Source: Paraglaciecola sp. L3A3
Lineage (GTDB): Bacteria > Pseudomonadota > Gammaproteobacteria > Enterobacterales > Alteromonadaceae
Length of the DNA: 64,000 bases
NCBI RefSeq assembly: GCF_009796765.1
Contig: NZ_CP047023.1
Location: forward strand, 3,765,501-3,829,500
Reading direction: 5' to 3'
Shown: positions 1,350-54,344 of the stretch, piece after piece
Numbering within the stretch: the stretch's first letter is position 1
How the letters are laid out: the number at the start of each line of letters is the position of its first letter
Program-made: the position numbers and the translations under genes
Notes under the pieces: model-generated
Told to the model about the DNA's origin: nothing
What the model saw: only the letters and a program-made list of their open reading frames with translations
Database searches by the model: none

Positions 1350-3269
1350 ATGAAAACTAGATTTATTAATTCCCGATCCTTTGGGGTTATTTGTTTGGCA
1401 ACGATGCTTTTTGGCTGTGACGACGATAAAATCGTCGAAGTTGAAGTGCCGGTAGAGGTTAATGCCGAACATGCATTATTAACAGACCCATTTTTACAAG
1501 TCCCAACCGATAGCTCAATTAATGTTGTGTGGTTCACTAATTTTGAAGGTACAGAACATAGTTTAACCTTTGGAGACACTTCAACTACTGATGTAACCAC
1601 CACACAGTTAAGCCGAATGATGGAAGATGCTTCTTCACAGCAATTTAGTAAAACCTATGACGCGGTAAGTTATCGTGAGGTTTATCGTCATGAAGCGACA
1701 GCTGAAGGATTAACCCAAGGTGTACGACTAGACTATTCAGTATCAAGTAAAGATGAAGACGGGTTCGAATTCACAAGTAATACATTTACTTTAGCCCCAG
1801 CGCCAGCGAAAAATGCGCCGTTGAAAATATTATTAACCTCTGATTTGCAGTCAAAAAAGAACGTTGTGGCTAACTACCAAAAAGTGGTTGAAACAGTTGG
1901 CACACCTGATGCTGTTTTATTCGCTGGAGATTTTGTAAACGTACCAGACCGCGCCTCAGAATGGTTTGACCAAGCTAAAGATAACGCACCTGGTTTTTTT
2001 CCTGCGTTACAAGGCCACTATCAAAAATACCTACCTGGCTTCCCATACAATGGTGGTGAAATTCTGCAACATTCGCCACTATTTGGCACCATAGGTAACC
2101 ATGAAGTTATGGGGCGTTATAACCCAACTGATGATGGGTACTCTCTCAATGGTAGCTTTAATGATCCGCAGCCCCCATGGTATGCAGAAGCAGCTTACGA
2201 GCAAGTTAAAGCTGATGTTAACCCAACTGATGACTCAGACATTAAAGCTCAATGGATTGCTGATCAATCACATAATCAAACCAGTTTCTTAGACATTTTC
2301 TCTTTCCCTGAAGATGGTCCAGGTGGTGAGGAATACTACGCAACTGAATTTGGTGACGTATTTATCATATCTATGAATGTATCAAGAATATGGCGCTCGT
2401 GGAGTGTTTCTGGTGCAAGCAAATCTAAATTCGTAGAAGGGTTAAGCACCTTAGAAGATCCTTCTCAATGGGGATTTGGTGAGTTTTTATTTGAACGTTT
2501 TGACAAAGATTCAGAACAATATGCTTGGTTAGAATCAGTAATGGAAACAGATGCCTTTAAAAACGCAAAATATAAAGTAGTCATGGCTCACCAAGGTGTA
2601 TTCGGTTTAGGTGACAATACGGTACCAGTATTATCTCAACCGGTTATGCAGCTCGTAGAAACCGACACTCAAGGTATTGAAACAATTACCGAATTTACCT
2701 TCCCTTTAACAGCTGAAGCTTGGGCCAATACGATTGAACCTATGCTTGCCAACGTTAGCGAAGTACTTTACCAATACCCACTAGATCAAGATGTATGGTT
2801 AAACGACATTGAACCACTATTATTGCAAAATGACGTAAATTTAGTTCACATAGGGCATTCTCACTTATGGAATCGTGCGCAAGTTGAGAGCCTTCATTAT
2901 TTAGAGAGTTCAAACGTAGGGAATTCTTATGGTGCATACTATGTAGACAGCAGCGGTGTGTATACCAGAGATGTACGTTCTAGTTATGCTGATTTTTGGG
3001 CTGACGTCAATTCAGAAAAACCTCGCTGGTCAATTATCGATTATCCACCAAATGGAGATCCGCAAGACCGCGTTATGAGCTTTCCTACCGTTTTCAGCCC
3101 TATGAGCCTAGAAAATGACGATTATCCAAACCTACCTTTCGTGACCAGTAATACCTTATCAGTGTTCTCTATACTAGATACGGGTACTGGAACAGTACAA
3201 AGTTATGTATTTGACCCATCTGATCTAAATTCTGAAGTCCAATTATTTGATGAATTTTCTATACAGTAA
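1350..3269 (+). CDS. Calcineurin-like metallophosphoesterase lipoprotein
   Basis: A 639-residue protein whose N-terminus is a lipoprotein signal with lipobox LFGC (Cys about 23), so it is probably anchored to a membrane facing the periplasm. The metallophosphoesterase motifs occur in order: LTSDLQ (about 168-173, Asp ligand, with Gln where many members have His), FAGDFVN (about 192), GTIGNHEV (about 249), VVMAHQG (about 412) and IGHSHLW (about 499). This order and spacing fit purple-acid-phosphatase-like or PhoD-like enzymes that hydrolyse phosphomonoesters or diesters using a two-metal centre. The substrate is not identifiable. It stands alone and is followed immediately by a strong terminator. 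The stop codon is included in a 251-bp tandem duplication that covers the downstream spacer. Confidence 0.85.
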   Translation: MKTRFINSRSFGVICLATMLFGCDDDKIVEVEVPVEVNAEHALLTDPFLQVPTDSSINVVWFTNFEGTEHSLTFGDTSTTDVTTTQLSRMMEDASSQQFSKTYDAVSYREVYRHEATAEGLTQGVRLDYSVSSKDEDGFEFTSNTFTLAPAPAKNAPLKILLTSDLQSKKNVVANYQKVVETVGTPDAVLFAGDFVNVPDRASEWFDQAKDNAPGFFPALQGHYQKYLPGFPYNGGEILQHSPLFGTIGNHEVMGRYNPTDDGYSLNGSFNDPQPPWYAEAAYEQVKADVNPTDDSDIKAQWIADQSHNQTSFLDIFSFPEDGPGGEEYYATEFGDVFIISMNVSRIWRSWSVSGASKSKFVEGLSTLEDPSQWGFGEFLFERFDKDSEQYAWLESVMETDAFKNAKYKVVMAHQGVFGLGDNTVPVLSQPVMQLVETDTQGIETITEFTFPLTAEAWANTIEPMLANVSEVLYQYPLDQDVWLNDIEPLLLQNDVNLVHIGHSHLWNRAQVESLHYLESSNVGNSYGAYYVDSSGVYTRDVRSSYADFWADVNSEKPRWSIIDYPPNGDPQDRVMSFPTVFSPMSLENDDYPNLPFVTSNTLSVFSILDTGTGTVQSYVFDPSDLNSEVQLFDEFSIQ

Positions 3270-3277
3270 TTAATAAA

Positions 3278-3318
3278 ACAGGTAGTAGCCAATGCAGGCT
3301 ATTACCTGCTCTTTTTTA
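3278..3318 (+). terminator. Rho-independent terminator of the phosphoesterase gene
   Basis: An 11-bp stem (AGGTAGTAGCC pairing with GGCTATTACCT, one G-U pair) around the loop AATGCA is followed by GCTCTTTTTT. It starts about 10 bases after the stop codon. Confidence 0.85.
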
Positions 3319-3528
3319 TATCAGCCTGAATTAACGCTAATTCGTGTCACTTTAGTTTTAGCTTCATCAACAATACAAATACTTATTCCCGTCATATTTC
3401 TCAACACGCCATTCCGGTGCGCTTTTTAGCCCGTCATTCCGGTGCGCTTTTTAGCCGGAACCATTCTTTTATAAGCAACTAATTATCATGCCTGTCCTGT
3501 TACTGCTCTCTATACAGTAATTAATAAA

Positions 3529-11320: not shown

Positions 11321-14300
11321 TTAATTGGCCACAGCCAGCACTTTTAAACTCGACCATTGATTTTTAATCAATGGATCTTTACCTCTTGGTTTCACTCGTG
11401 TATTGCCAGGAAGAACCTGCACCTTAACAATAAAAGGGTCTATACCATCTTTTGCAACTATGTAAGTTCCTTTCTGAATAGACCAGACATCTTGCTCTAG
11501 CATTCTTTTCCAAGTCTCTCCTTCATAATCAAAAAGGCTTCCTATCTCTATTTCAGGTATTGATTGATTCTGATTACCACAGATACCCTCACTAAAAAAA
11601 CTGATCTCATATTCTGGAAATAAAGATGGGTGGTTCCTAACCCATGACATTCTTCGAGTAAGATTAAATGAATCCAAAAGTCTTACATTTTTGACATAAG
11701 CTTGCTTTCTAGCGAAGGTAATAATAGATTTCGAAACTTCATCTCTCATCTGATGATCAAGTTGCCAGAGTGGGTGGGCAACTATATTCAAAATTTCCCC
11801 ATCTTCAGAAATCCAGCCGTGTAGATAAGAACCATCGGTTATTGGAATAATGTTTCCATCACCAAATGCCGAACAATAATTTTTAGCGATTTCAGCAAAT
11901 TCTTCCTGCGAGCTTTCCAGACCAAGCCCCCAATCTTCAAAATATGGCGTTACACCGGGTATATAGGCAGAGTCACGTATTACCGATAGTAACTCTAAGC
12001 CAAGCCGCCAATCTATTAATGGATGTAAATGGCGATTACGGAAGCCCTTCAGGAGTAAATTAGGACTTCTCCATTCTTGCCCAAGAGTTTGAGCACGTTT
12101 GCATTCATCACGTAAAAATCGCCCCAATTTAGAAAATTTATCGTGATTAATTGGATCAATACAACCCGCGATTAATTCAGACCAGTTCTTATTTGCCCAA
12201 TTTACTAAGCCCGAGCCATTGGGGTGTTCATCTGATAGGTAGAGCTCGGCACCTTCATTGATATCATGCTTATATTTATGAACAGATGCGATTTCTATAT
12301 CTAGTGAATCAACATCAAGTTCCAGAGCAATCGCTCTTTGTAGAATAGTGGCAGTAGAAAACCATGCAGCTTTTCGGCAAGCAACCTCTTTAGGTTTATC
12401 AAAGAAGCATAGCCCAGGACGATCAAGTAACCTTATACTCAAAAGGTCAGTAGTCTTAGATGCAGCAAGTGACGCATGTATATCATTACTTTTAGGGTTT
12501 TCAACCCACATTGGAGCATTAAGCCACTGGCCATTGGGTGTTTGAAATGTATCCAACTTTTCAAAAGAAAAAGGGGATAAATTTGCGCTTTGAGTAATTC
12601 TGTATACCTTTTGCTGATGAGCGAAATTTAAAAAAGCACCTCTATTAGGATCTTTATTTATATCTTTTATCGCTTCTGAAGCAACAAAAGATACAGATCC
12701 TGAGCCACCATTTGATTGGCCTGAACCTGCAGGTTTACTGAGATTAAAGTCTGTCATGAAGCCATTAGGAACAACGGCCAAATAAGCACTCGCATTATCT
12801 GAACCACATGTCGAACATTGTTGGAAAGGCTCTCTACCTTGAACATCTTCAAGGTTAACTGGAACAACACTCAGGTTTCTACATTCACGGCAAAAAACTT
12901 GCCAAGTAGTTTCACCAACAGGATCGGCATACGATGTCCATTGATTTGTTTTTCGATGCTTAATTGGCCCAACAATCCCTATAGGTGTTAAGAGACGCTT
13001 ATCCCATACTCTCTCTGAGCCAGGAGCATAGTCTGTAATGGCCTGCTCAATAGAGCGATCCAATGTTTTCGCTTCTTTAGACCGTCCTTCTCCGCTTGGT
13101 AACCCAAAGTGCAGATTTCTAACCATCGTAGGCATACCATACATGGGCAGTACACCAGCATCAGCTAATGCATTAGCTAAACCACGTGATTTATCTTGTT
13201 CACTTTTAACAACAGTATCTAAACGCTTAATCATTGCAATATTATCAATTAGCGACTCTGCTTTTATAGATGTTCCTCGAGTGACAACCTCAGCAATCTG
13301 TAAGATGGTTTTCTTATTATTCTCTAACCATACTGCTACATTACTTCGTCTATCACCTACATTATCGATATAGTCTTGTACAATCCCCATTTCACCATGG
13401 GTATCCGGTTGAGAATTAAAAGCAGTCCAAGTTAAGCCCACGGCTTGAAATACACGACGTAAAACTTCTTTATTAAAGAGTCTTTCCGCTAAAATATTTT
13501 GATCTTCACTGACCGAAACACTAGGTTGAGGGGGAATACCACTGGTCATTTCTTCTGGATGTTCAAAGTGGATACGATCATGAGTTTGACCTCGACAATA
13601 GGTCAACGCCGCAGAGAATGCTTGCTTCTTTCGGCCTGCGCGACCCGCTCGTTGCTGATAATTAAAACGTTCAGGTGGCATATTAGCCTGAAAAACAGAT
13701 AGTAAAGATCCTATATCAACACCGACTTCCATCGTAGTAGTTACCGATAGTAAATCAATACTGTCGACTTTGCGGTTTATATTACGGGACACGACATCAT
13801 CTAGCTGCTCATCTTTAAAAAAGATATCTCTGAAATGTCGCTGCCTTTGCGCTTGATTATCAGTTTGACCTGTTAATTCCTCCGAATGAATGCGAAATGC
13901 AGATGAAGAATTTACAGATAAATTTGCATGATAATGCCCTATTTCTATTTGTTCAGCAGTTTTAATACCATTTGGTTCATTGGGTAGAATTGATGAACAT
14001 CTGGCACAAACACCACCGGATGAGTGCCAATGAATTTGAGTACAGTTATCACAAATCCACGGTTTATTATTTGGCTTAACATTTCGCACCCATAACTGGT
14101 CGAGTCTAACAATTCCCCAATGATGGCCTTCGCTGATGTGAGCATCACACACAGCAACTCTTAGCGATTCATAGTTTGTACCATTATGCTGTGCACATAT
14201 CTCTAAGTACCTTTTGACTCGCTTTTGGACAATCTGTCGTGACTTATCATTCGGCTGATCTATTTTCCATTCAGTTCTAGGTCCATTTTGGTCATACTCA

Positions 14301-17300
14301 TATGGAACCGTAAAGTACTCTTCCGTGAGAATACGTAAAACACTCTCAGCAATATTTCTGAAAACATCTGATGGTATACCTGCGGGGCCAGCTTTATTGA
14401 ACTTGGATGAAAGAGCAAGGTGACCGAAACCTTTAGACTCTAAGTTATAAAGCAGGCGACCAGAGATCGCCTTCCAAGCCTTTTTCCTTAGTGTGGAATC
14501 CATTTTATTAATCAAGAAATTCTTTTTTTCCTCGGTCAGATTATTAGCTAGTAAAGCCTTATCAAAATCAATAAGATCTACCCAACCAAAAGACTGTCCA
14601 TGCCTTGATTGGAAGTACTTTACATCAACACCCGAACCAGCAGGATTAACACCAAGTTCGAGCATTCTTTGCCAAATTATAGGAACATCCAGTTTATCCT
14701 GACTTACAGGGTGCAAGAATGAATCTAACCGAACATAACCAGATTTATAGTTAAGGATTATTTCTACATTAGATTTAGCATCTAATGTAGCGCGATTAGG
14801 TTTTTTGATGACTAATTCAGCATCACTTAAAAAGGAGAGCAACTCATCTTCAATATCAATGTTATTTTCAAGAAGTCGGTCAATTTCCTCGTCTTTACCT
14901 TCTATAACGCACTCTAAAATTTCTTTCTTGATTTCTTCTACAAAGCCAACAGAGCGATGACGTATTTCATCAAGAATGAAATACTGTAACAAGCTATCCC
15001 ATTGACCAGATTCAACTCCATGAGCTAATTTAGCGGCGGCTTGTCGGCTATCAGAAAAGGCAACGAGCTTTCTAAAATCATTAGGGAGTACAGACATCAA
15101 ATGCTTTGCAAGTAATAAAGACATTTGATCTAAACCTGTTGCAAATGCCCTAATAGGAGATGGCTTCCCCCCCTTCCTTTCAGAATAGCTTGTATAGCAA
15201 GACGGGCACATCTGTGGCATTGCAGGTAATTGAAATTCATTTTCCCAATGAGGATCATGATCATCAACACTAAACCATAGGCATTTAGTTTGTTTCGGGT
15301 TATCAACTCCCACCTCGACAATTCCTGTATACGGGTCAATTGAAGCTTTTTCCCATGCAGCGGGTGCAGCTTTAACTGGCTTACCAACACGTCCCTCTAG
15401 ACCTGTTCGCTCGACAGAACCCTGATCCCAAGTCAAGCCATCCACATTTGGATATTCATCTGGTACTAAATAAACAACACCTAAATTCTTATAACTTTGT
15501 GCATCAGTGCGACCTTGCGGTGCAGCTTCTGGTATGCCTTCAATGGTTGAAGGTAGAGTTGCAAGTTCATATTTAGTCCCCTTCACCCCGCCAGCATGCA
15601 TTTTATAACCAGCTAATAATTGAGTGCCGCAACATTCGCAATAAAGAACTTCTAATACTCGTTTACCTTCAAAAACTAATCTTGATTCGGGTAATAGCTT
15701 ACCAACTCTACGTTTGCTATCTTTTTGGTCTTTAATATCAGCAGTAGCCCAAAGTCCATCAATGTTCTTAGTCATCCAATGAAAACGCAGTCTAGGTAAA
15801 ATAAAGTTTGTAAAACCCTGTCCTTTATTTTGAAGGGTTGTGGCCTGTCCTAAAGCATAAAACAGTCCCCTTATTGCAACGCTTTGCTCTTTATACGAGA
15901 TGTTACGGAAGCAAATAGACTTTAGCTTCTTCAGAGTTATAGAGGTGAACCTATTACTCTTTTTACTAAAAAAACTATAAGCAATAGCTTCCATATTTTT
16001 AGTAGTGATAAGTTCATTTATAAGCTCTTTTACACGTTCACTTTCAACTTCATTTCCACTTTCAACTGTCTCTCCTAAATTTATTGAAGCCATATCGACA
16101 TTTTCTGAAAAGTCATGTGCTTGTCCATCTGCTGGATACATAGACTCACCACTTTCAATATGAAAGCGTTGTTTTGCCTCGATTGGCGTCAAACCAAACA
16201 TTCCACCTAGGAAATTATATGACTCTTCATCTTCTCCTAAGGAAGCACTAGACGCTAAAATCTGGAGTTGCTTGCTATCTGCAGACAAGCCAAGCCTATC
16301 CATCAATAATCTGAGTAGATAACCTACTTCTGTGCCCGACGAACCACGATATAGATGCAATTCATCTACAACTAGTTGGAAGACATGATTTTCTCTATCC
16401 TCTTCCAACCACTTCTTAGTCGCTTCAAAAATTTGAGAATCGGCTCGATCATTAGCTATAGTTTTATCTTCATGACGCATTAGCATAATAGATAACATAC
16501 TTACATTGGTAATGAGTAAATCAGGTGGTGTGTCTTGCATTTCCCAACGATGGAACATTTCGCAGGAGTCCACTTCCATTCTCGGAATAAAATCTTGCTG
16601 ATCTTGTAAGGTAACTAGCTCTTTTTCTTTTGTTTTTATTTTTTCCTTATTGCCTTCTTGCTTAGCCTTTTCTAGTTCATTATTAGCATTCTTTAACTGC
16701 TCTTTGTATTCTTCATATTCACTATGTGCCTGCGTAATTTTTTTAGTAAGTTCTGATCTTTTAGCTGTATTGGCTTTCCCATCCTCTTTGCAAGGATGCC
16801 CTGATACTGGAGTTGAGCCGTTGTATCGACCAAATCGAATTCGGTTCCCCTCTAAAGCATCATCCATAGCATTGAGTGACTCTTTAGCATCCAAAGCTGA
16901 TCTCAACCTTGAAATTTGATCTTCAACTAAAGCATTCATTGGATAGAGCAATAACGCACGAACTGCTGGGGTTCGTGTCTCTTTTCGTAGCAACTTCCTA
17001 CTACTATCCCATTTAATGCTATTTCCCCAGGTTTTATTTGGATCTTGTGGAGGTTTCCAGCTTCCTTTAGCTTCTTTAATAATGGATGCCAATACTGGCA
17101 GCAGGAAAGCTTCAGTCTTACCAGAGCCCGTTCCAGTAACAACCACGCAATGTTTTCGTTCTTGAGCCAATGCTTTTTGTAACATTACTTGTTGATGTTG
17201 ATATAAATTTATATTTTTCGGTATAAGAGATGCACTTGCGACCTGAACAAAAGAACTAATAGTCTCTAGTGATAAAGCTGGTAAATCTTTTGTATTTAAC

Positions 17301-17506
17301 TCTTCTAATTTTTTTCCGGATTTATAAACAGGTAACACTTCAACATAAGGTTCTTGGAAAAAAACACCCGGAGAATCTAACAAACTCTGACGATCTTCCT
17401 CAAATGACTTGGAGTTTGTACCAAATGCGGACTTAACATATTTTTTTAAATGATCTTGAATATTTTCCCAAGCGCCAATTGGGTCGTTATCTATACGAAC
17501 TGACAT
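11321..17506 (-). CDS. druE: Giant DUF1998-type DEAD/DEAH helicase, DruE-like
   Basis: A 2061-residue superfamily-2 helicase. Walker A VVTGTGSGKT is at 122-131, motif II VVDELH at 379-384 and motif III ASSAS at about 418-422. The C-terminal helicase lobe has MEVGVDIGS and QQRAGRAGR (about 1285-1295). A coiled-coil insert rich in Lys/Glu spans about 250-305 inside lobe 1. Several Cys pairs suggest zinc sites: YCECCG, MCPSCY, ICDNC...CARC and FCREC...CSTCG. A DUF1998-like segment with YLSDEHPNGSGLV lies near 1755. This size and layout match DruE, the shared large helicase of Druantia anti-phage systems; DISARM DrmA/DrmB is a more distant alternative. It overlaps the upstream gene by 16 bases, implying coupled translation. 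Confidence 0.8.
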   Translation of the reverse strand: MSVRIDNDPIGAWENIQDHLKKYVKSAFGTNSKSFEEDRQSLLDSPGVFFQEPYVEVLPVYKSGKKLEELNTKDLPALSLETISSFVQVASASLIPKNINLYQHQQVMLQKALAQERKHCVVVTGTGSGKTEAFLLPVLASIIKEAKGSWKPPQDPNKTWGNSIKWDSSRKLLRKETRTPAVRALLLYPMNALVEDQISRLRSALDAKESLNAMDDALEGNRIRFGRYNGSTPVSGHPCKEDGKANTAKRSELTKKITQAHSEYEEYKEQLKNANNELEKAKQEGNKEKIKTKEKELVTLQDQQDFIPRMEVDSCEMFHRWEMQDTPPDLLITNVSMLSIMLMRHEDKTIANDRADSQIFEATKKWLEEDRENHVFQLVVDELHLYRGSSGTEVGYLLRLLMDRLGLSADSKQLQILASSASLGEDEESYNFLGGMFGLTPIEAKQRFHIESGESMYPADGQAHDFSENVDMASINLGETVESGNEVESERVKELINELITTKNMEAIAYSFFSKKSNRFTSITLKKLKSICFRNISYKEQSVAIRGLFYALGQATTLQNKGQGFTNFILPRLRFHWMTKNIDGLWATADIKDQKDSKRRVGKLLPESRLVFEGKRVLEVLYCECCGTQLLAGYKMHAGGVKGTKYELATLPSTIEGIPEAAPQGRTDAQSYKNLGVVYLVPDEYPNVDGLTWDQGSVERTGLEGRVGKPVKAAPAAWEKASIDPYTGIVEVGVDNPKQTKCLWFSVDDHDPHWENEFQLPAMPQMCPSCYTSYSERKGGKPSPIRAFATGLDQMSLLLAKHLMSVLPNDFRKLVAFSDSRQAAAKLAHGVESGQWDSLLQYFILDEIRHRSVGFVEEIKKEILECVIEGKDEEIDRLLENNIDIEDELLSFLSDAELVIKKPNRATLDAKSNVEIILNYKSGYVRLDSFLHPVSQDKLDVPIIWQRMLELGVNPAGSGVDVKYFQSRHGQSFGWVDLIDFDKALLANNLTEEKKNFLINKMDSTLRKKAWKAISGRLLYNLESKGFGHLALSSKFNKAGPAGIPSDVFRNIAESVLRILTEEYFTVPYEYDQNGPRTEWKIDQPNDKSRQIVQKRVKRYLEICAQHNGTNYESLRVAVCDAHISEGHHWGIVRLDQLWVRNVKPNNKPWICDNCTQIHWHSSGGVCARCSSILPNEPNGIKTAEQIEIGHYHANLSVNSSSAFRIHSEELTGQTDNQAQRQRHFRDIFFKDEQLDDVVSRNINRKVDSIDLLSVTTTMEVGVDIGSLLSVFQANMPPERFNYQQRAGRAGRKKQAFSAALTYCRGQTHDRIHFEHPEEMTSGIPPQPSVSVSEDQNILAERLFNKEVLRRVFQAVGLTWTAFNSQPDTHGEMGIVQDYIDNVGDRRSNVAVWLENNKKTILQIAEVVTRGTSIKAESLIDNIAMIKRLDTVVKSEQDKSRGLANALADAGVLPMYGMPTMVRNLHFGLPSGEGRSKEAKTLDRSIEQAITDYAPGSERVWDKRLLTPIGIVGPIKHRKTNQWTSYADPVGETTWQVFCRECRNLSVVPVNLEDVQGREPFQQCSTCGSDNASAYLAVVPNGFMTDFNLSKPAGSGQSNGGSGSVSFVASEAIKDINKDPNRGAFLNFAHQQKVYRITQSANLSPFSFEKLDTFQTPNGQWLNAPMWVENPKSNDIHASLAASKTTDLLSIRLLDRPGLCFFDKPKEVACRKAAWFSTATILQRAIALELDVDSLDIEIASVHKYKHDINEGAELYLSDEHPNGSGLVNWANKNWSELIAGCIDPINHDKFSKLGRFLRDECKRAQTLGQEWRSPNLLLKGFRNRHLHPLIDWRLGLELLSVIRDSAYIPGVTPYFEDWGLGLESSQEEFAEIAKNYCSAFGDGNIIPITDGSYLHGWISEDGEILNIVAHPLWQLDHQMRDEVSKSIITFARKQAYVKNVRLLDSFNLTRRMSWVRNHPSLFPEYEISFFSEGICGNQNQSIPEIEIGSLFDYEGETWKRMLEQDVWSIQKGTYIVAKDGIDPFIVKVQVLPGNTRVKPRGKDPLIKNQWSSLKVLAVAN

Positions 17507-20500
17507 TTTTTATCCTCTATCCTTCTCGATATTGTATTGCATCGCATTTCCCTAAGTTCACCACCAAGTAAACTTGCTATATTTCTCGCGACTACTTCTG
17601 GTACCCAGCGATAACAGAGCCATTTACCATTAGCCATTTCACTGAACACACAGCTTACTTTGCCAATCACTCGCTGATTTGTGTCAAAAAGCAAGATAGA
17701 TTCACCATCCATCTTACTTGTAATTTGCATTACAATAGGTCCGTCTCCAGCAGACAATGTTAAAGCACGCTCTATAACAAAAGGGGGTTCCATTCTTGCC
17801 GGCAGCCATAAACATCCCGTTACCTTGTCATAAGGGATTGGCCAAGGGCTAGCGTCAAGTATGCTGTAAGGAGGATTTTTAATAAATTCGGCAAATGCCC
17901 TAATAGCTATCCAAACTCCCCACCTTGAATCATGAATAAAACTATATTTTGAAACACCATCTCCAAGATTTTCACCTAGTTTATATACACGCATGCCTTG
18001 TATTTTCGGATCTTCATACTTAAACAGCTCAAATTTACGACTTTTATCAACCAATATATTTTCTGTTTCATTAAATACACCTCGACCTGGATTCAATCTC
18101 TCTAAGTAATTAGGACAGAAACCATGTTCTGGATACCACGCTAGGTTTTCTATTGTTTCCTGAATAGAACCCAACCATTGAGATAATTTTTGAGCGGGTA
18201 AATCAACCACCTGAAAATTACACAACTGTGCGATCTCAGTGATCCCTAAGAATCCATCAGAAGAAATACGAATAGCAGGTAATTTGTTTGATGTAGTTTT
18301 ATCAATAAAGACTCGGCAATCGGAAACCTCTTCGAGTTCTTTCCATTGCTGCAGTCTTAGACTTCCGCAAACTCCATACAACTGACGTTGCTCACTATTG
18401 GTAATGGGAAGGCTATAAAGGGATGGCGGCACAGAACAAACACGAACCATGTGCCCTGTTACATTTGTTTCAACTTCAACATGCCCTCTGCGCCTAAGTT
18501 CACGTATCAAAAAAGCTGGTTCTATATCATCCATACCAATATTACTTGCAAGACGTCTAATTTGGTCACGAGCCACTCCATAGCTCATTGAACCTTTATC
18601 AGCCGTTGCAACTGAGTCCATAAATAGAGACGAAACATTAGACTCCATGCATTCAAAAACATTTATTACAGCCTCATTAGCCAGAGTTACCGCATCAACT
18701 TGAAAGGAACTAATATCTAGATCACTTGTAGGTACTTCACCAATAATAGCTCCTAGAAGACCACTTCCGTCGGCTAATATTCTCCCGTATTTATCAACAG
18801 AAAAATGAGACCTCTGTGTCGTTGCTAAACCACCAGCAGCTAAAACCTGCAAGCCGGCAGTACACAGTACTTCACCGCCCAATGTTGCTTTAATCTTAAA
18901 AACGTAACCACTCCCCTGATTTTGGGTAAACTTAAAACGTTTAATCGAAAGATTCTGATTTTTGTCTAGCTCTTCAAAAGTCAATCCTGAGGCAATTAGT
19001 TCAACACCAGTTGGTGCTTCCAATTCAATAATAGGCAAGTCGTAGTATGCATATTTTTTACTGCCAGAACCAAGGATAGGCTTGCCTCCAACAAGTCTAA
19101 TACGTGCCTTTGTAGGTGCAGATATTTCTTCATCCACAATTACTGCTCGCTGTTCAGGAGTTAGATTTTCTGTATTTTCAATACAAATAAGGCCCCATTG
19201 TTCCGGTAATCCACCTACTTCAACTACTTTCGTATAACTTATATTTTCATTTTTTAGTAGTGATTCTAAATTCGAATATTTGATAGATGAGTAGAGCAGG
19301 AATGCTGTTCCTCTTATTGGAAATTCACGCTCAAGAAGTGAGTCATTCAATGAAGCATCTGGGCTATCCCATATTAAGACTCTAATTTTGTCTCGTCTTA
19401 GGTAAATATTTCTTTCTTTTCTCTCGCCATCACTTTCCGTATATGAAAGCATTGACGTAACTTCTTCTAAAGCTGATTGATTTAATGCGCTTCTTGCATT
19501 TTCTTGACTAGTAGAAGGGATACAATGTAAGTGGGTTCCTACCAACTCTAATCTTGCCTTAACTTCCTCATCATTATTTACTTTAATTGCATAATTATGA
19601 CCAGTAACAGTGACAGGAAGGCGCCAGCCTATATCCCAACAAGGAGTGTCATCATTATTATTCAACTTTAGAATAATAGAAAGTTCGCCCCTATCTTCTT
19701 GTTGAACATCAAGTAGTTCATCTTGAACGTCACTACTAGGGGTCGTATGTTTTGGCACACGCCCATCCCAAAATTCAAGATGAGTACTTAATAATTGCTT
19801 TAGATGAAGCCTATAATCCTTCGATCCCATTGCATCCTTGAGACCCGTGCTTAAGTAGTGTGAATTTTGACCGTGCTCGAGTAATTGGTCAAAGTGATTG
19901 TCATCCAAAATTTGTCCGGAATGTAATCTGCAACTGCCGAATAATCGACTTATACCATCCATATCTTTATGAGTGACCATAATTTGAGCATAAGCCATTC
20001 CGACAAATCTATTTTGTCCAAGTACATTAACTCTAAAGTATCCAAACTCTCCTTCTTGACGAGTAGACCAACGTGCTAAATCAGTCCATACTTCTCCCAT
20101 TTTATTCCCTAGATTGTTAGGAAATGGTTCTGAAATCAATTCACTAACTCTTGCATAGAAACCTTTTTCAACTTCAGATCGGGCTAGCACCCATAATGCA
20201 ATATATGGTAGATAGGTTGGGGATTTTTTATCTTTGTATATCTCTAATTTATTGCCTGGATCATTATATCCGGTAGGGCGTTTGCTAGGCCATGCTCGTT
20301 GGCTGACTAACATATTAGCTTTAATAGCTATATTATCGTTGCCATATATCCAAGCTGGTCCTTGTTTAACGGCTTCAATTAAACCACTTACTCCACCTAA
20401 ATGAACTCCAATACCTTCAAGTTCAAGCCTATTTGTAGAAATCCAAACATCTTGACCAGCGTTGGCCGGTGAAAAGTACTCTTCGAGTAATATTGAATTC

Positions 20501-20520
20501 CATTCAGTAAATAAAGACAT
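17491..20520 (-). CDS. Large defence-island protein of unknown fold (DruH/DruF-like position)
   Basis: About 1009 residues, first gene of the minus-strand defence operon and overlapping the giant helicase gene by 16 bases. I place the start at ATG 20520 (MSLFTEWNS), preceded by GTGGAA at good spacing. An upstream in-frame ATG at 20604 would add 28 residues but has no ribosome site and runs back toward a repeat. No catalytic motif is recognised. The middle is rich in beta strands. The region YGVARDQIRRLASNIGMDD to about residue 720 looks helical and could be winged-helix-like. In Druantia type III the helicase partner is the single protein DruH, and in type II the partners are DruF and DruG; which one this matches cannot be settled by reading. 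Confidence 0.65.
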   Translation of the reverse strand: MSLFTEWNSILLEEYFSPANAGQDVWISTNRLELEGIGVHLGGVSGLIEAVKQGPAWIYGNDNIAIKANMLVSQRAWPSKRPTGYNDPGNKLEIYKDKKSPTYLPYIALWVLARSEVEKGFYARVSELISEPFPNNLGNKMGEVWTDLARWSTRQEGEFGYFRVNVLGQNRFVGMAYAQIMVTHKDMDGISRLFGSCRLHSGQILDDNHFDQLLEHGQNSHYLSTGLKDAMGSKDYRLHLKQLLSTHLEFWDGRVPKHTTPSSDVQDELLDVQQEDRGELSIILKLNNNDDTPCWDIGWRLPVTVTGHNYAIKVNNDEEVKARLELVGTHLHCIPSTSQENARSALNQSALEEVTSMLSYTESDGERKERNIYLRRDKIRVLIWDSPDASLNDSLLEREFPIRGTAFLLYSSIKYSNLESLLKNENISYTKVVEVGGLPEQWGLICIENTENLTPEQRAVIVDEEISAPTKARIRLVGGKPILGSGSKKYAYYDLPIIELEAPTGVELIASGLTFEELDKNQNLSIKRFKFTQNQGSGYVFKIKATLGGEVLCTAGLQVLAAGGLATTQRSHFSVDKYGRILADGSGLLGAIIGEVPTSDLDISSFQVDAVTLANEAVINVFECMESNVSSLFMDSVATADKGSMSYGVARDQIRRLASNIGMDDIEPAFLIRELRRRGHVEVETNVTGHMVRVCSVPPSLYSLPITNSEQRQLYGVCGSLRLQQWKELEEVSDCRVFIDKTTSNKLPAIRISSDGFLGITEIAQLCNFQVVDLPAQKLSQWLGSIQETIENLAWYPEHGFCPNYLERLNPGRGVFNETENILVDKSRKFELFKYEDPKIQGMRVYKLGENLGDGVSKYSFIHDSRWGVWIAIRAFAEFIKNPPYSILDASPWPIPYDKVTGCLWLPARMEPPFVIERALTLSAGDGPIVMQITSKMDGESILLFDTNQRVIGKVSCVFSEMANGKWLCYRWVPEVVARNIASLLGGELREMRCNTISRRIEDKKCQFV

Positions 20521-20637
20521 ACAATTTCCACATAAACTTGGTTTATTTAAATTTCGAAAATGAGTTAAAGAACTTAAGAAAAGAATTGCGCCTGTTGGCG
20601 GCATGGTCGTGACTGTTTTGGTCTACAATCAAAGGGG

Positions 20638-20845
20638 GGTAGTCAATTTAGTTGAATAAAACGGCTCTGACACATTAGTCAATTCCCTCACCCGATTAAA
20701 CGCAAGGTGTACTAACTCCAAATCACTTGCCATAAAACTTCATATCCATCGAACGTAAACAGTTGTTTTTAGTCTTTATTTTATACAACCGAGATTACTA
20801 TTTTTACCAAGAAAAGCAAAGTAGTTATTTTTAGGGCGTTTTTGA
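20638..20845. repeat. Long direct repeat, copy 1
   Basis: This segment begins GGTAGTCAATTTAGTTGAAT and ends near TTATTTTTAGGGCGTTTTT. A second copy lies at about 22482-22750 in the same orientation. Copy 1 lies just upstream of the first defence gene and should contain its promoter. The two copies bracket about 1.6 kb with two toxin-antitoxin pairs. Confidence 0.8.
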
Positions 20846-20911
20846 TACTAGGAGCAGACCTCATCATAACCTCTCAAAATTAAGGCTTTCAGTGCGATAA
20901 GGTGAAGTTTG

Positions 20912-21440
20912 CTACTTTCGCTTCAGCCAATATCCTGGTCGTTTGCTATTGTGCATAATCGCGACAATATAAATAACCTGAGCTCAGGATAAGCCGAGCC
21001 TCTCGTTAACGCTCTTTTTGCGCCTAGCTGCGTTGGATTTTCTAGAAATAGCCAGCTATTACATACGAAAAACCGCCTTGCTATACACGAAAAATTTCGT
21101 CATCGAGTAAACCTTAGCCCAAACAGAACTGGAACATATTTGTAAGTGTTTGAATTGTTTTTAAAATTCAATTCATAACGACACACATTATCCCGAGTTC
21201 AGGTTAAATATGTTTTGATTGGATTTGATAAATAACAGAGAAAGGAAATCGTGAAAGCAAAAATCGGTGGTGGTTTGCCCCAAACTTAGGCTAAGTTTGA
21301 GGGAGCGATGCTATCGTCTCGAACGCAGATTCTAACTCTGCGATAAAATCATTACCCAACCCTTGTGCTTGAAGTGGGTACCAATCGTATGATGATTGCG
21401 TATCATGTTTAATGTCGGGATGAAAGGACAGCGTGAACAT
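20912..21440 (-). pseudogene. ParE/RelE-family toxin, nonsense mutation plus MITE insertion
   Basis: The frame starts at ATG 21440, one base after its antitoxin, with the family N-terminus MFTLSFHPDIKHD and YDWYPLQAQGLGNDF. Codon 50 is TAG (21291-21293) where family members have Trp (LPQTWPKF). The same frame then continues with PKFGANHHRFLLSRFPFSVI to 21206, where a 231-bp element (20975-21205) interrupts it. When the element and one copy of the flanking AAAT are removed, the frame continues without shift as IYIVAIMHNSKRPGYWLKRK and stops at 20912-20914. This is the normal C-terminus of these toxins, so the ancestral gene had about 98 codons. The toxin is inactive by two independent lesions. 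The family assignment is strong; the order of the two lesions is unknown. Confidence 0.9.
20975..21205. mobile_element. 231-bp MITE-like element with 18-bp inverted ends
   Basis: Left end AACCTGAGCTCAGGATAA and right end (read inward) AACCTGAACTCGGGATAA match at 16 of 18 positions. The element is flanked by AAAT on both sides (20971-20974 and 21206-21209), a 4-bp target duplication. It has no coding capacity, so it would need a transposase in trans; none is in the window. It sits inside a ParE toxin gene. Related sequence occurs at 54073 to about 54227 (left end and about 150 bp of interior) and as a short end-like fragment at 60699-60727. Confidence 0.85.
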
Positions 21441-21441
21441 A

Positions 21442-21663
21442 TTATTTTACAATCTGACTTTTTATCTGCTCCCAACTTACCGCTTTCACTTCACCTGCAA
21501 CCAGCTCTTTGCTTCGCGCCTGCGATAGGGCTAACCAAGCTGAATCAACATCATCATTTGGTTTTTCTTCAAGTGAAGACAATAAGCAATGTGCGGCTAA
21601 TGCTTTTTCACTGGATGTCATATGTTCTATATTTTCGAGCACAGACTTCAAAGCTTTAGACAT
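21442..21663 (-). CDS. Addiction-module antitoxin, intact
   Basis: A 73-residue acidic helical protein of the short antitoxin family often called putative addiction module component. It starts with a helical block (LKSVLENIEHMTSSEKALAA), has the conserved DSAW-like motif VDSAWLALSQARSKEL in the middle, and ends VSWEQIKSQIV. Such antitoxins bind and neutralise a ParE/RelE-type toxin encoded immediately downstream, which here is a pseudogene. The intact antitoxin may persist as an anti-addiction function or be decaying. AGGTGAAAAT before the ATG gives a ribosome site. Confidence 0.8.
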   Translation of the reverse strand: MSKALKSVLENIEHMTSSEKALAAHCLLSSLEEKPNDDVDSAWLALSQARSKELVAGEVKAVSWEQIKSQIVK

Positions 21664-21820: not shown

Positions 21821-22111
21821 TTATAAATACCTATCTGGCTCCATGCTTTGATGCAAGATATCGATGATATCAATATGCATATCTCTGATGCGGTAATAGA
21901 TTGTGTGCCTGCCTTCGTAGTAGCTGTAATAGCCCGTCTTAATTTCGCTTCTGGGCTTACCATCTAAGGGGAACTTAGCTAATTGCTGCATTCTTTTGCG
22001 CAACCCATTTAAATATAAACTTGTTGGCTGTTTACCGTAGTTTTCGAAGGTATAGCGCTGGATTTGTTTAAGGCTTTTTTGTGCTTGTGGTGAAAGAACA
22101 AATTTAGCCAT
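21821..22111 (-). CDS. parE: ParE-family toxin
   Basis: A 96-residue RelE/ParE-superfamily protein with a typical N-terminal helix pair (FVLSPQAQKSLKQIQRYTFE), core GKPRSEIKTGYYSYYEGRHT and the C-terminal strand TIYYRIRDMHIDIIDILHQS followed by EPDRYL. ParE toxins poison DNA gyrase. ATG 22111 lies inside the last codons of the antitoxin gene (8-base overlap), so translation is coupled. The TTG at 22114 is a weaker start. It appears intact. Confidence 0.88.
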   Translation of the reverse strand: MAKFVLSPQAQKSLKQIQRYTFENYGKQPTSLYLNGLRKRMQQLAKFPLDGKPRSEIKTGYYSYYEGRHTIYYRIRDMHIDIIDILHQSMEPDRYL

Positions 22112-22343
22112 CAATTAATTCTTTCATAAATGCATCGCCATCAATACCTTGTCCTTGGTCGAGTTCCGCTTCTCCTACGGCCAAAACAGCTTTTAATCTA
22201 TCCAGCTTTGTTTCTTGCTCTTCAAGTAGGCGCAACCCAGCGCGTATCGCTTCGCTTGTGGAGCCGTAGCGGCCTTCTTGAACTTTGCTTTCTATGAAGC
22301 CATCAAAATGTTTGCCGAGCGTGACGCTAGTATTTCTAGGCAT
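22104..22343 (-). CDS. parD: ParD-family antitoxin
   Basis: A 79-residue ribbon-helix-helix protein beginning PRNTSVTLGKHFDGFIESKV, with the family motif RYGSTSEAIRAGLRLLEEQE (about 25-44) and an acidic C-terminal tail that wraps the toxin. It binds DNA as a dimer to repress the operon and neutralises the ParE encoded by the overlapping next gene. Complete in length for the family. Confidence 0.9.
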   Translation of the reverse strand: MPRNTSVTLGKHFDGFIESKVQEGRYGSTSEAIRAGLRLLEEQETKLDRLKAVLAVGEAELDQGQGIDGDAFMKELIDG

Positions 22344-22829
22344 GGCAATATCCTTTATAAAAAGAAGTGTATTATTTATTAATACACTATTTTAGGGATG
22401 GTTTCCAATGAAACCTACGGCTTCTTTTTATGAAATACATGGATGTATTTCATAAAATAAAAGAACTCGAAGATAAAAGGAGGTAGTCAATTTAGTTGAA
22501 TAAAACGGCTCTGACACACAAAGTATTCACTCCAACATTGCGGTGCGCATTTAAGCTCGTCATTCCGGCGTGCTTTTTAGCCGGAACAATACCCTCACCC
22601 TATTAAACGCAAGGTGTATTAACTGTAAATATTCCAAATCACTTGCCATAAATATTCATATCCATCGAACGTAAACAGTTGTTTTTATTGAACAATCGAG
22701 ATTTCTATTTTTACCATAAAAAGCAAAGCAGTTATTTTTAGGGCATTTTTTATTCAAGTATTTACTGAGTATGCTTTGGGCCAAAGCGCTTGCTTTTGAC
22801 AATTAACAAGACAACCATTAAACATTAAA
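22344..22829. repeat. Spacer with long direct repeat, copy 2 (22482-22750)
   Basis: The repeat starts GGTAGTCAATTTAGTTGAAT at 22482 and runs to about 22750, parallel to 20638-20845. Relative to that copy it contains about 60 extra bases carrying a CCGG-type palindromic unit (about 22556-22590, CCGGCGTGCTTTTTAGCCGG), which looks like an insertion into the older repeat. No gene is seen in the interval. Confidence 0.75.
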
Positions 22830-23114
22830 TTAGATATGTCGAGTGAAATCCATTTCAGTACGAAGCACGCGGCCTATAATGATGTTGGATGATTCGATTC
22901 GATAATAAATGGAGTGAGCGCCAGAAATTACACGGCGGCAATTGGGATAAATGCCATCAATGGCGGCATACTGAAAAGGATTTTCAGCCGCCTTTTGGCA
23001 TTTTTCAATAATAGATTCATAGTAAATTATGGCCGCGTTAACGCCATATTCTTCAATTCCTGTACTTAATATTACACTAAGATCTTCATCTGCTTTCTCT
23101 GTAAAAACGTACAT
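22830..23114 (-). CDS. parE: ParE-family toxin, second pair
   Basis: A 94-residue RelE/ParE-superfamily protein: N-terminal YVFTEKADEDLSVIL helix, central PFQYAAIDGIYPNCRRVISG and the C-terminal HSIYYRIESSNIIIGRVLRT ending DFTRHI. Not closely similar to the ParE at 21821-22111. The ATG at 23114 shares one base with the antitoxin stop (TGATG). The predicted role is inhibition of gyrase or another growth target. Complete. Confidence 0.87.
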   Translation of the reverse strand: MYVFTEKADEDLSVILSTGIEEYGVNAAIIYYESIIEKCQKAAENPFQYAAIDGIYPNCRRVISGAHSIYYRIESSNIIIGRVLRTEMDFTRHI

Positions 23115-23365
23115 CACTGTATGCTTTTCTTGCTCAATACGTCTTGCATAATATCCTCAGCACTTCGGGGGCTTATACCGCTGTTAAAACCCTCATCTAA
23201 CAACCCACGCAAAACCGCTAGGCTAGATTGTGCTTTCTGCTCTTGAAGCAAGCGCAAAGCTTCACGCACAACTTCACTTTGGTTGTTATATTCACCCGCC
23301 GCGATCAAGTCCTCGATAAAAGTGCCTAGCTCACTGCTGGGCTGAAATGTAATAGTACGCGCCAT
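23114..23365 (-). CDS. parD: ParD/CC2985-type antitoxin, second pair
   Basis: An 83-residue ribbon-helix-helix antitoxin with TITFQPSSELGTFIEDLI at the N-terminus, the family signature EYNNQSEVVREALRLLQEQK (about 25-44) and a tail suited to toxin binding. It is translationally coupled to the ParE gene after it. The spacer upstream holds a likely promoter region, but no clear operator was identified. Confidence 0.88.
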   Translation of the reverse strand: MARTITFQPSSELGTFIEDLIAAGEYNNQSEVVREALRLLQEQKAQSSLAVLRGLLDEGFNSGISPRSAEDIMQDVLSKKSIQ

Positions 23366-23836
23366 AAAAACCTCATGTAAGTTTTATACTTACATTAAAA
23401 TTACACCTAAAATACCATTGATGCAAGAATATTCATATTTGATTAGTTACACATTCAAAAAAACTGTGGGTGCAGTTTCGTTGAAAAGTTGACGCCATAA
23501 ATGGACGACCTACAAAAGATTAAAAGCTAGTCACAAAAGTACACAGAGCAGTGGATAGGGAATAGTTAAAAGATAAGAACAAGTCGTTTTTCTTAACAAT
23601 AAATATTTCTTCTCTGTGGGCGAAGCCTCTGTGATCAGCTTTTGATTTTAACATTCTATTGCTTTTCTCTGTGTAACTCTGTGACACGCTTTGGCTTTGG
23701 CTTTAGTTTTTATCGGGACAGCCATAATAGTGGCATGACCAACAACCGCGGGAGTTGTTTGGGTGATGAGTCTGTTTTTCCATAGAATTGACATTGCGTA
23801 CGTTTAGTCGTACGCTTATTTGTGAGGAGAAATTCT
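23366..23836. other. Repeat-bearing spacer between divergent TA pairs
   Basis: Contains a copy of the GACGCCATAAATGGACGACC element (about 23491-23530) that also occurs in tandem at 25.7-25.9 kb, and CTCTGTG...CTTTGGCTTT fragments shared with 29.2-29.4 kb. A reverse-orientation copy of the CTGTCC repeat core lies at about 23713-23735. The region just before 23837 is the promoter of the YefM-YoeB pair. GTACGTTTAGTCGTACGCTT (23796-23815) contains a GTACG-CGTAC dyad likely to be the YefM operator. Confidence 0.5.
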
Positions 23837-24079
23837 ATGACAACACTTAATGCTACAGAAGCTCGTTCTAAACTTTATGCCCTTATTGATGAAACATCGG
23901 CAAGTCACCAACCCATAGTCATTACGGGGAAAAGAGGCAATGCGGTACTTTTGTCTGAAGACGATTGGAATGCTATTAATGAAACTTTGCATCTTGTCTC
24001 CATACCCGGCATGCGTGAGTCTATTCAAGAAGGTTTGGAAGAAGAATTAACGGATTGCGAAAAGGAACTTGATTGGTGA
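23837..24079 (+). CDS. yefM: YefM/Phd-family antitoxin
   Basis: An 80-residue Phd/YefM antitoxin: N-terminal DNA-binding block TLNATEARSKLYALIDE, then PIVITGKRGNAVLLSEDDWN (about 30-49), a hallmark of the family, and an acidic C-terminal tail. The start at ATG 23837 is set by the ribosome site GTGAGGAGA, so the earlier GTG at 23822 is rejected. The stop overlaps the toxin start. The product represses the operon, probably via the GTACG dyad at about 23796-23815. Confidence 0.9.
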   Translation: MTTLNATEARSKLYALIDETSASHQPIVITGKRGNAVLLSEDDWNAINETLHLVSIPGMRESIQEGLEEELTDCEKELDW

Positions 24080-24339
24080 GCTGGACGCTTTATTACACCA
24101 AGCAAGCGCAAAAAGACGCCAAAAAGTTAGCTTTGTCTGGTTTGAAAGCTAAAGCCCAAGAAGTGTTGAATATTATTAAAAATAATCCTTATCAAAATCC
24201 CCCACCGTTCGAAAAACTTGTTGGTGACTTAACGGGCGCGTACTCACGTAGGATCAACATTCAACACAGACTTGTCTACCAAGTATTAGAGCAACAACAA
24301 TCAATAAAAGTGCTTAGGTTATGGACTCATTATTCATAG
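24076..24339 (+). CDS. yoeB: YoeB-family mRNA interferase toxin
   Basis: An 87-residue RelE-superfamily toxin with the YoeB pattern SWTLYYTKQAQKDAKKL, central NPPPFEKLVGDLTGAYSRRI and C-terminal QHRLVYQVLE...LRLWTHYS. The terminal His/Tyr (HYS; HYY in E. coli YoeB) and the Glu and Arg of the core are the known catalytic residues and are present. YoeB cuts mRNA in the ribosomal A site. GTG 24076 overlaps the antitoxin stop codon (GTGA); the TTG at 24073 is an alternative. Confidence 0.9.
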   Translation: MSWTLYYTKQAQKDAKKLALSGLKAKAQEVLNIIKNNPYQNPPPFEKLVGDLTGAYSRRINIQHRLVYQVLEQQQSIKVLRLWTHYS

Positions 24340-25426: not shown

Positions 25427-26090
25427 AATAAAGACCTTAGGAGGCTTAAAAGTGTAATTGGGACAAGTGAATATAATAATATTCTATCTATTATAAAGTG
25501 AATTCACTATGGTTAATTTTTAACTTCAATACAAACGAAAAAGGTGTTGAAGCAGTTAAAAAAGAATAAAAGGGGGCGTTTTTAATCACAGTGAGCGCAG
25601 CTCATCACCTCTTCTCAAAAAAGAAAATCATTGAGAAGATGCTTCCTCCATTACCACCTGTAGGTCGCGGCTTTAGCCCGTCAAGGTTTAAAAATAGACG
25701 CCATAAATGAACGACCTACAAAAGATTAAACGCTAGTCACAGAGGTACACAGAGAGTTAGCACGTGTTGAAGATAAACATTTACACCACCTGTAGGTCGG
25801 GGCTTTAGCCCGTCAATGTTGAAAAATAGACGCCATAAATGGACGACCTACAAAAGATTAAAAGAAATTGTCACAGAGGTACACCGAGAATTAACACGTG
25901 TTGAAGATAAACATTTGCATCACCTGTAGCTCGTGGCTTTAGCCTGTCAATATTGAAAAGTTAAAATATATACACGTCAACAAATTGAAATATTCATGCT
26001 GTATAAATTACATTCAAAATAAGGTAAAATTCAACTTACAGTGCTGAATACAACAGCTCAAGGATTTTTAAATAATGAAAGGGACTTTGC
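25427..26090. repeat. Tandem repeats of about 132 bp, no gene
   Basis: Three consecutive units start CACCTGTAG at 25655, 25787 and 25921 (periods 132 and 134). Each holds a block like GGCTTTAGCCCGTCAA, then GACGCCATAAATG-ACGACC, a CACAGAGGTACAC block and GTTGAAGATAAACATTT. The third unit is incomplete. The first block (TGTAGGTCG...) and GACGACCTACA can pair, so each unit could fold into a long hairpin. Related single pieces occur at 23.5 kb. The last 100 bases should hold the promoter of the following lipoprotein gene. Confidence 0.8.
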
Positions 26091-54045: not shown

Positions 54046-54344
54046 AGTTTAGCAATGTTTTCGTAACTATTGAACCTGAGCCTAGGATAAACCGAACCTC
54101 TCAATAACGCTCTTTTTGCGCCTAACTGCGTTAGAAAGTCTAACAATAGCCAGCTATTACGTACGAAAATCAGCCTTTCTATCCATAAAAATTTCGTCAT
54201 CTAGTAAGATGACGATTTAACCCCAAATGAATATGCATTTATTCCCTTTGAATGTTATTGCCAATTATTCCATTTGACCTATAACAGCACTATTTTAATA
54301 TATGTTTAATTTTTATTTCAACGCTTATAGCTAATCAAATTTTA
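54046..54344. mobile_element. Truncated copy of the MITE-like element (54073 to about 54227)
   Basis: Starts AACCTGAGCCTAGGATAA at 54073 and matches the interior of the element at 20975-21205 with GCTCTTTTTGCGCCTA, TAGCCAGCTATTAC and AAAATTTCGTCATC blocks. It loses similarity by about 54227; no right inverted end is seen. It lies directly after the pilin gene. The remaining 115 bases are AT-rich without a feature. Confidence 0.75.

What the first reader, a model, noticed from the sequence alone, without database searches (positions are those of the whole stretch)
20912..21440. ParE toxin gene killed by nonsense codon and MITE; precise removal restores the frame
The toxin frame after its intact antitoxin has TAG at codon 50, exactly where the family has Trp. 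Downstream, a 231-bp element with 18-bp inverted ends is flanked by AAAT on both sides. Taking out the element plus one AAAT joins the two halves in frame to a standard ParE C-terminus (IYIVAIMHNSKRPGYWL). This fixes the element's ends, its 4-bp target duplication and the fact that it inserted into a formerly whole gene. It also shows a selfish pair dying by toxin loss first.
Basis: seen in the sequence. Interest (0 to 1): 0.75.

Follow-up and report, generated by a model that had tools for sequence, protein, structure and literature searches.

The report
Toxin gene broken by hairpin MITE
A bacterial toxin-antitoxin pair has lost its toxin to a stop codon and to a 0.23-kb jumping DNA element; the loss is ordinary, but the element belongs to a widespread family whose central hairpin keeps its shape in many bacteria while its letters change.

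Summary
The window's genome is of the genus of Paraglaciecola arctica. The ParE-type toxin frame after an intact 73-aa antitoxin (PF09720) has an in-frame stop at codon 50 and a 231-bp insertion at codons 78/79. A natural uninterrupted allele in P. arctica serves instead: 97 codons, no internal stop, one target copy, both window pieces matching side by side.

Two corrections. The outer T and A are repeated too in 64 of 70 copies, so 6-bp TANNTA fits at least as well as 4-bp AAAT. Similar ends, with identical 6-bp flanks in 4 of 15 rows, belong to IS982-family elements of the same genus. Whether stop or insertion came first cannot be read here.

Toxin loss with the antitoxin kept is common in this family and expected.

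The unexpected part is the element. Its ~108-nt core hairpin occurs in 93 of 394 sampled genomes of the order; 32 of 39 pairs show compensatory change. One strand folds better in 44 of 46 rows, which suggests selection as RNA. No Rfam match. Function is not shown.

The parts
21442..21663 (-). antitoxin gene, 73 aa, intact
   Evidence: PF09720 Unstab_antitox E 2.3e-10; TIGR02574 below its cut-off; 95.5% DNA identity to P. arctica
21206..21440 (-). 5' part of the ParE-type toxin gene, codons 1-78 plus one base, with an in-frame stop
21291..21293 (-). in-frame stop at codon 50; P. arctica, MB-3u-78, G003 and G015 carry a sense codon there
20975..21205 (+). MITE, 231 bp on the 4-bp reading (20976-21204, 229 bp, on the 6-bp reading)
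   Evidence: inverted ends, many copies, duplicated target
20970..20975 (+). left target copy TAAATA (inner AAAT 20971-20974)
21205..21210 (+). right target copy TAAATA (inner AAAT 21206-21209)
21001..21109 (-). conserved hairpin of the MITE; the better-folding (RNA) strand is minus, the sense of the toxin-antitoxin genes
   Evidence: model R1: 113.5 bits on minus, 24.6 bits on plus (this copy is one of the model's 46 rows); covariation
20912..20974 (-). 3' part of the toxin gene, 20 residues and stop, includes the left AAAT
54099..54206 (-). second copy of the hairpin element in the window (left end 54073; right end not determined)

Best explanation
A type II toxin-antitoxin pair (PF09720 antitoxin, ParE-family toxin), shared at about 94-97% DNA identity with P. 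arctica, has lost its toxin by two lesions: an in-frame stop and the insertion of a non-autonomous MITE with IS982-type ends. Shown: gene pieces, stop, insertion, duplicated target, natural uninterrupted allele, and a multi-copy family with the same ends and the target preference TANNTA. Inferred: an IS982-family transposase moved the element in trans, because IS982-family elements in the same genus have similar ends, mostly TANNTA flanks and some 6-bp duplications. The element carries a ~108-nt hairpin whose shape is conserved by compensatory change, with one strand folding better. Inferred: it is kept as RNA inside neighbouring transcripts, most likely as a cis stability or processing hairpin, as proposed for NEMIS elements. 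The order of stop and insertion is unknown.
For: Natural uninterrupted allele with one target copy. Copies and ends: 171 end matches against 0 in the control. Target: 70 of 100 copies with identical inner 4 bp, 64 of these 70 with identical 6 bp, 65 of 70 with T....A outside. IS982 link: a 292-aa transposase named IS982 family by NCBIfam NF033520 (E 4.6e-78; also PF13612) next to an end reading CCCGAACTCAGGT|TATTTA in an IMG/VR contig. ~1-kb elements in G012, found with that protein, have ends ACCTGAGATCTGCTTAA / ACCTGAATCCTGTTTAA; 23 of 30 flanks read TANNTA, and identical 6-bp flanks TACATT, TAATTA, TAGTTA occur in 4 of 15 rows, two of which (L263, L268) are the same place. Hairpin: 89.8% of cells paired against 72.8% shuffled (0 of 500) and 38-48% slid; 32 of 39 pairs with change on both sides; RNA strand folds better in 44 of 46 rows, mean -38.6 against -27.5 kcal/mol. 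Spread: 93 of 394 genomes, 31 of 114 genera. No Rfam match.
Against: No whole parent found in this genome: one protein search gave only a broken IS982-type remnant at 731637-731885. 11 of 15 rows in G012 lack identical flanks, and 7 of 30 flanks are not TANNTA. 30 of 100 MITE copies lack a perfect inner 4-bp repeat, although flanks helped to choose some copies. The G.U/A.C asymmetry is partly base composition: other genera show 21 G.U against 81 A.C on the given strand (sign test over columns p 0.00086), but partner shuffling alone gives 50.5 against 91.9; in own and same-genus copies (13 against 44) the sign test is not significant (p 0.29). No preference for RNA-sense over antisense between co-directional genes (7 against 8), which does not support a cis role tied to one orientation. 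The fold was derived from the same sequences on which it was counted. No expression data.
Confidence: 0.8

Rival explanations
1. The hairpin is conserved as DNA (cruciform or palindrome), for example for transposition, and compensatory changes arise by template switching between the arms; it has no RNA role.
For: The hairpin sits inside a transposing element; no orientation preference relative to genes; the strand asymmetry in pair types is partly composition; palindromes can be copied arm to arm during replication (recalled).
Against: Strand asymmetry in folding: the same strand folds better in 44 of 46 rows, and G.U is depleted more than A.C on the given strand relative to shuffles. Template switching would repair pairs on both strands alike (inference).
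Confidence: 0.3
2. The MITE inserted first and the stop codon came later in an already dead gene (or the reverse); together they are plain neutral decay with no lesson about order.
For: Either lesion alone should remove the C-terminal part; the compared codons after the stop show only 4 synonymous changes from P. arctica, so the gene died recently.
Confidence: 0.6
3. The element moves by a transposase other than IS982 with a true 4-bp duplication (ANNT) and ends AACC..GGTT.
For: Six of 70 copies fit only 4 bp, and five of these differ at the flank-side base.
Against: IS982-type elements in the genus have similar ends starting ACC with 6-bp repeats in some copies, including TACATT, where the base next to the element is not A.
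Confidence: 0.2

Closest known systems
IS982-family MITE MITECca01 of Cardinium (PMC9769881, passages seen)
   Same: about 240 bp, no transposase, ends like an IS982-family element, many copies in one genome
   Different: reported with intact parental IS982 copies in one endosymbiont; the family here was found in 31 of 114 sampled genera of one order and has a covarying hairpin core
ERIC / NEMIS (Correia) small repeats (PMC2229807, PMC10969869, passages seen)
   Same: short mobile repeats with long stem-loop transcripts
   Different: most small repeats are described there with TA at the termini; here IS982-type ends and TANNTA targets, and a fold supported by compensatory change and a better-folding strand
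SonMITE_1 of Shewanella oneidensis (Romine et al. 2008; paper not held, only its mention in PMC10969869 seen)
   Same: a MITE in Shewanella, a genus in which a relative of the present element occurs (plasmid of S. baltica OS155)
   Different: sequence not seen; it may or may not be the same family
ISSod20 and ISSde7, IS982-family elements of Shewanella (table in PMC7335449, passages seen)
   Same: about 1 kb, gamma-proteobacterial IS982 elements, possible parents
   Different: direct repeats listed as 9 and 8 bp, against 6 bp here; ends not compared
Type II toxin-antitoxin pairs with PF09720 antitoxin and ParE-type toxin
   Same: gene order antitoxin then toxin, Pfam matches
   Different: toxin inactive here; the antitoxin matched PF09720, not the ParD profile

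Membership tests
MITE (non-autonomous miniature inverted-repeat element) | short, no transposase gene, terminal inverted repeats | tested here: met
   231 bp, 18-bp ends with 2 mismatches; no frame of 40 aa or more inside it
MITE (non-autonomous miniature inverted-repeat element) | many dispersed copies with target-site duplication | tested here: met
   171 end matches in the genome; 70 of 100 copies with identical inner 4-bp flanks
MITE (non-autonomous miniature inverted-repeat element) | natural empty site | tested here: met
   P. arctica L116 holds one target copy and both gene parts side by side
IS982-derived element | ends start with 5'-AC and resemble those of an IS982-family element | tested here: met
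   ACCTGAGCTCAGGATAA against ACCTGAGTTCGGGATAA beside an NF033520 IS982 transposase
IS982-derived element | same target duplication as the parent | tested here: inconclusive
   64 of 70 copies fit 6 bp, 6 fit only 4 bp; IS982-type relatives: 4 of 15 rows with identical 6 bp
IS982-derived element | whole parent transposase in the same genome (usual for an active MITE, not defining) | tested here: not met
   only a broken remnant found by one protein search; full-length relatives in other genomes; activity not testable
ParE/RelE-family toxin | match to the family profile | tested here: met
   met by the natural P. arctica allele, PF05016 E 1.6e-6, no NCBIfam hit; the two window pieces alone give no Pfam hit
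Functional toxin-antitoxin pair | both frames open | tested here: not met
   toxin has a stop and an insertion
Structured RNA family | compensatory base changes across divergent sequences | tested here: met
   32 of 39 pairs; 0 of 500 shuffles reach the observed value
Structured RNA family | transcribed in vivo | not testable with these tools
   no expression data

The most novel reading that the evidence does not exclude
The MITE family is a mobile RNA module: an element with IS982-type ends that spreads a ~108-nt hairpin selected as RNA (in one strand) across at least 31 genera, with a conserved internal-loop motif (CAAGGCG / CAACGC on the RNA strand), and so carries one RNA signal, such as a processing or protein-binding hairpin, into many transcripts.
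Probability: 0.35. Interest if true: 0.68.

Novelty: new member of a known kind. Interest (0 to 1): 0.45.

Why it matters
The toxin loss itself is ordinary and expected: a toxin can be lost while its antitoxin stays, hardly the other way round, and the counts here agree. What matters more is that the inserted element is one copy of a widespread family, without an Rfam match, whose hairpin shows strong signs of selection on its shape. If the hairpin acts in transcripts, insertions such as this one do more than break genes: they attach an RNA structure to whatever is transcribed across them. With 95 model matches in one genome (8 of them opposite-strand echoes, so about 87 places) and a natural uninterrupted allele in hand, that is directly testable.

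Tried and rejected
Autonomous parent in the own genome: PF13701 (IS1380 type; that label is recalled) gave 0 matches; DDE_Tnp_1 gave two genes without these ends; the IS982 transposase found only a remnant. Stretches around ends without a listed partner were fetched to look for a longer parent (one search listed only the first 100 of 171 places) and gave MITE variants, including one with another element nested inside, but no parent. Orientation preference of the RNA strand: none among co-directional genes (7 same/same, 8 anti/anti); convergent sites 19, divergent 6; these 40 are the copies of 98 that had a long frame on both sides. Order of stop and insertion: not resolvable; one genome per species is held. 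Rfam at gathering and relaxed thresholds: nothing. RNAalifold on 47 own copies mixed with ~252-bp variants gave a poor consensus. For the hairpin alignments I dropped L231, L232, L218 and copies over 236 bp (leaving 88 rows), then near-duplicates (66 rows), then L040 and L072 (64 rows), and for the model used 46 rows. Papers: in the listings of searches (titles and abstract starts) I saw none that names this family; only passages of PMC2229807, PMC10969869, PMC9769881, PMC7335449 and PMC2701414 were seen, and Romine et al. 2008 could not be opened.

Full report
What is there. The minus strand of 20912-21663 carries an antitoxin gene (73 aa, PF09720) followed by a ParE-type toxin gene in two parts. 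The 5' part (21440-21206) has an in-frame stop at codon 50. The 3' part (20974-20912) ends with a normal stop. Between them lies a 231-bp element with 18-bp inverted ends and AAAT on both sides. Both AAAT copies fall in the same codon phase.

Natural uninterrupted allele. Of 22 genomes of the genus (the own one included), 8 hold the antitoxin and 7 the toxin's N-terminal piece. The two window pieces, searched apart, match it at 3224-3458 (96.6%) and 3455-3517 (93.7%), overlapping by exactly the 4 nt of one target copy. Paraglaciecola sp. MB-3u-78 (G013) has no insertion, but its frame stops five residues early. Codons 51-77 and 80-98 of the window differ from P. arctica by 4 codons, all synonymous; codons 1-49 by 6 (4 synonymous, 2 not). 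The gene therefore died recently, and the order of the two lesions cannot be read.

Toxin loss as a family pattern. Of 45 named loci found with the antitoxin, a script that lists stop-to-stop frames downstream gave, by my reading of its output: 26 toxins whole, 1 five residues short (L117), 12 broken into pieces, 5 without a toxin match in the 1.2 kb examined, 1 at a contig end. The antitoxin frame is whole in 11 of the 12 with a broken toxin and in 4 of the 5 without a toxin. None of the 45 had a whole toxin and a broken antitoxin. Starting from the toxin instead (54 of 295 genomes matched, 30 loci kept), 14 of 14 whole toxins of at least 45% identity have an adjacent antitoxin frame; 3 of the 7 more distant whole toxins (L187, L189, L190) have none of this type and may use another kind. 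Caveats: several loci are from closely related species, and 6 of the 12 broken ones are labelled metagenome assemblies, where frameshifts can be errors. The direction is what toxin-antitoxin biology predicts and is not new.

The element. In this genome the end pattern occurs 85 + 86 times against 0 + 0 for the reversed pattern. The element DNA is matched in 12 of 22 genomes of the genus and 54 of 295 of the family (at most two candidates scored per genome). Lengths cluster near 231 and 197 bp, with a ~252-bp variant in the own genome. I took 100 copies with both ends (47 of the own genome, 51 of relatives, and two IMG/VR elements with another core), some of them chosen with the help of matching flanks. 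70 have identical inner 4-bp flanks (AAAT 18, AGTT 11, ACTT 8, ATTT 8, others), and 64 of the 70 also repeat the outer T and A. The target is thus TANNTA, duplicated over 6 bp if the element begins ACCTG, or over 4 bp if it begins AACCTG. Six copies fit only 4 bp; five of these differ at the flank-side base.

Parent. A scan of IMG/VR for the end plus target pattern gave 6 stretches. In L235 the end lies next to a 292-aa transposase that NCBIfam names IS982 family (NF033520, E 4.6e-78; PF13612 E 1.3e-71); L233 has a similar, shorter frame. The L235 protein found matches in 8 of 22 genomes of the genus, 27 matches being in G012. Fifteen rows there have both ends, ACCTGAGATCTGCTTAA and ACCTGAATCCTGTTTAA (at least two rows are one place). 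13 of 15 left and 10 of 15 right flanks read TANNTA, and 4 of 15 have identical 6-bp flanks: TACATT, TAATTA, TAGTTA twice. A review states that 57 of 69 IS982 members begin with AC (PMC7335449, passages seen). I conclude that the MITE is IS982-derived and that 6 bp is the likelier duplication. In the own genome that search found only a broken remnant, so present mobility is unknown.

The hairpin. The left 136 bp of the element are the part shared by most copies. Across 64 copies from many genera, 16 of 17 predicted pairs show compensatory change. RNAalifold with RIBOSUM gave -42.1 for the given strand and -66.1 for its complement. On 46 sequences of the complement strand, 89.8% of cells pair, against 72.8% after shuffling partners and 38-48% after sliding; 32 of 39 pairs have changes on both sides; the covariation score is 0.506 against 0.191; 0 of 500 shuffles reach the observed value on any of the five measures. 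The structure was derived from these sequences, which favours it over the slid versions. Row by row, the complement strand folds better in 44 of 46 (mean -38.6 against -27.5 kcal/mol). On the given strand of the 32 other-genera copies, A.C mismatches outnumber G.U 81 to 21 (sign test over columns p 0.00086); composition alone predicts 92 to 51, so the excess is real but smaller than it looks. In own and same-genus copies (44 to 13) the sign test is not significant, p 0.29. On the RNA strand the motifs CAAGGCG and CAACGC, on opposite sides of the inner stem, vary little. The simplest reading is selection on RNA shape in one strand. In the window that strand is the sense strand of the toxin-antitoxin genes.

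Spread. Model R1 finds 95 matches in this genome (150 of 1708 candidates scored); by my count 8 are weak echoes on the opposite strand of a better match. In the order it matches 93 of 394 sampled genomes, 31 of 114 genera, with stricter filters. Of 30 loci returned, one of them from the own genome, 21 gave inverted ends with identical flanks in a scan that required both; 18 of these begin ACC. One source is named: the plasmid of Shewanella baltica OS155, a partial match to the window copy (72%) and 88.5% to a copy from another family. Rfam 15 has no match.

Function. No expression data are at hand. Of 98 copies, 40 have a long frame on both sides: 19 lie between convergent and 6 between divergent frames, but RNA-sense and antisense placements between co-directional frames are equal (7 against 8). 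This fits a structure tolerated, or useful, at 3' ends in either orientation. A cis role in transcript stability or processing, as reviewed for NEMIS (PMC2229807, passages seen), is the best guess, not a result.

Novelty. The gene loss is ordinary. MITEs with structured transcripts and IS982-type MITEs are both known. I saw no description of this family in the search listings named under Tried and rejected, but SonMITE_1 of Shewanella oneidensis (paper not held) may be a member. I therefore call it a new member of a known kind, with the RNA-module reading as the bold case.

Noticed in passing
window 20631-20851 and 22475-22758; L116 1575-1794, 2791-2898, 3680-3899: A ~110-220-bp direct repeat lies between or beside toxin-antitoxin pairs in the window and in P. 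arctica (two or three copies, 0.9-2.1 kb apart), which looks like cassette-wise gain of such pairs.
   Followed up: partly
window 21821-24339: Three further toxin-antitoxin pairs with open frames beside the broken one: two ParD/ParE pairs and one YefM/YoeB-like pair.
   Followed up: partly
window 11321-20604: The two large genes next to the cluster match DruE (E 0) and DruF (E 3.6e-35) of the Druantia anti-phage system in PADLOC-DB.
   Followed up: partly
L066 2554-3202: A 649-bp copy of the MITE holds another short element with GGGGCTGTTGACC-like inverted ends nested in its core.
   Followed up: no
L231 5150-5401, L232 5023-5272 (IMG/VR): Elements of about 250 bp with the same ends but an unrelated core: the same kind of transposase seems to move several MITE cores.
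   Followed up: no
L096 1637-1790 (G005): A 154-bp copy that has lost most of the hairpin but keeps ends and the inner target repeat.
   Followed up: no
window 23480-23548, 25686-25754, 25818-25886: A separate repeat family (69-90 nt, with a GTAGGTCG..TTTAGCCCGTCAA-like motif in some copies) in three copies.
   Followed up: no
L117 3224-3499: The closest other relative (MB-3u-78) has no insertion but a toxin frame five residues short, possibly a second toxin loss.
   Followed up: partly
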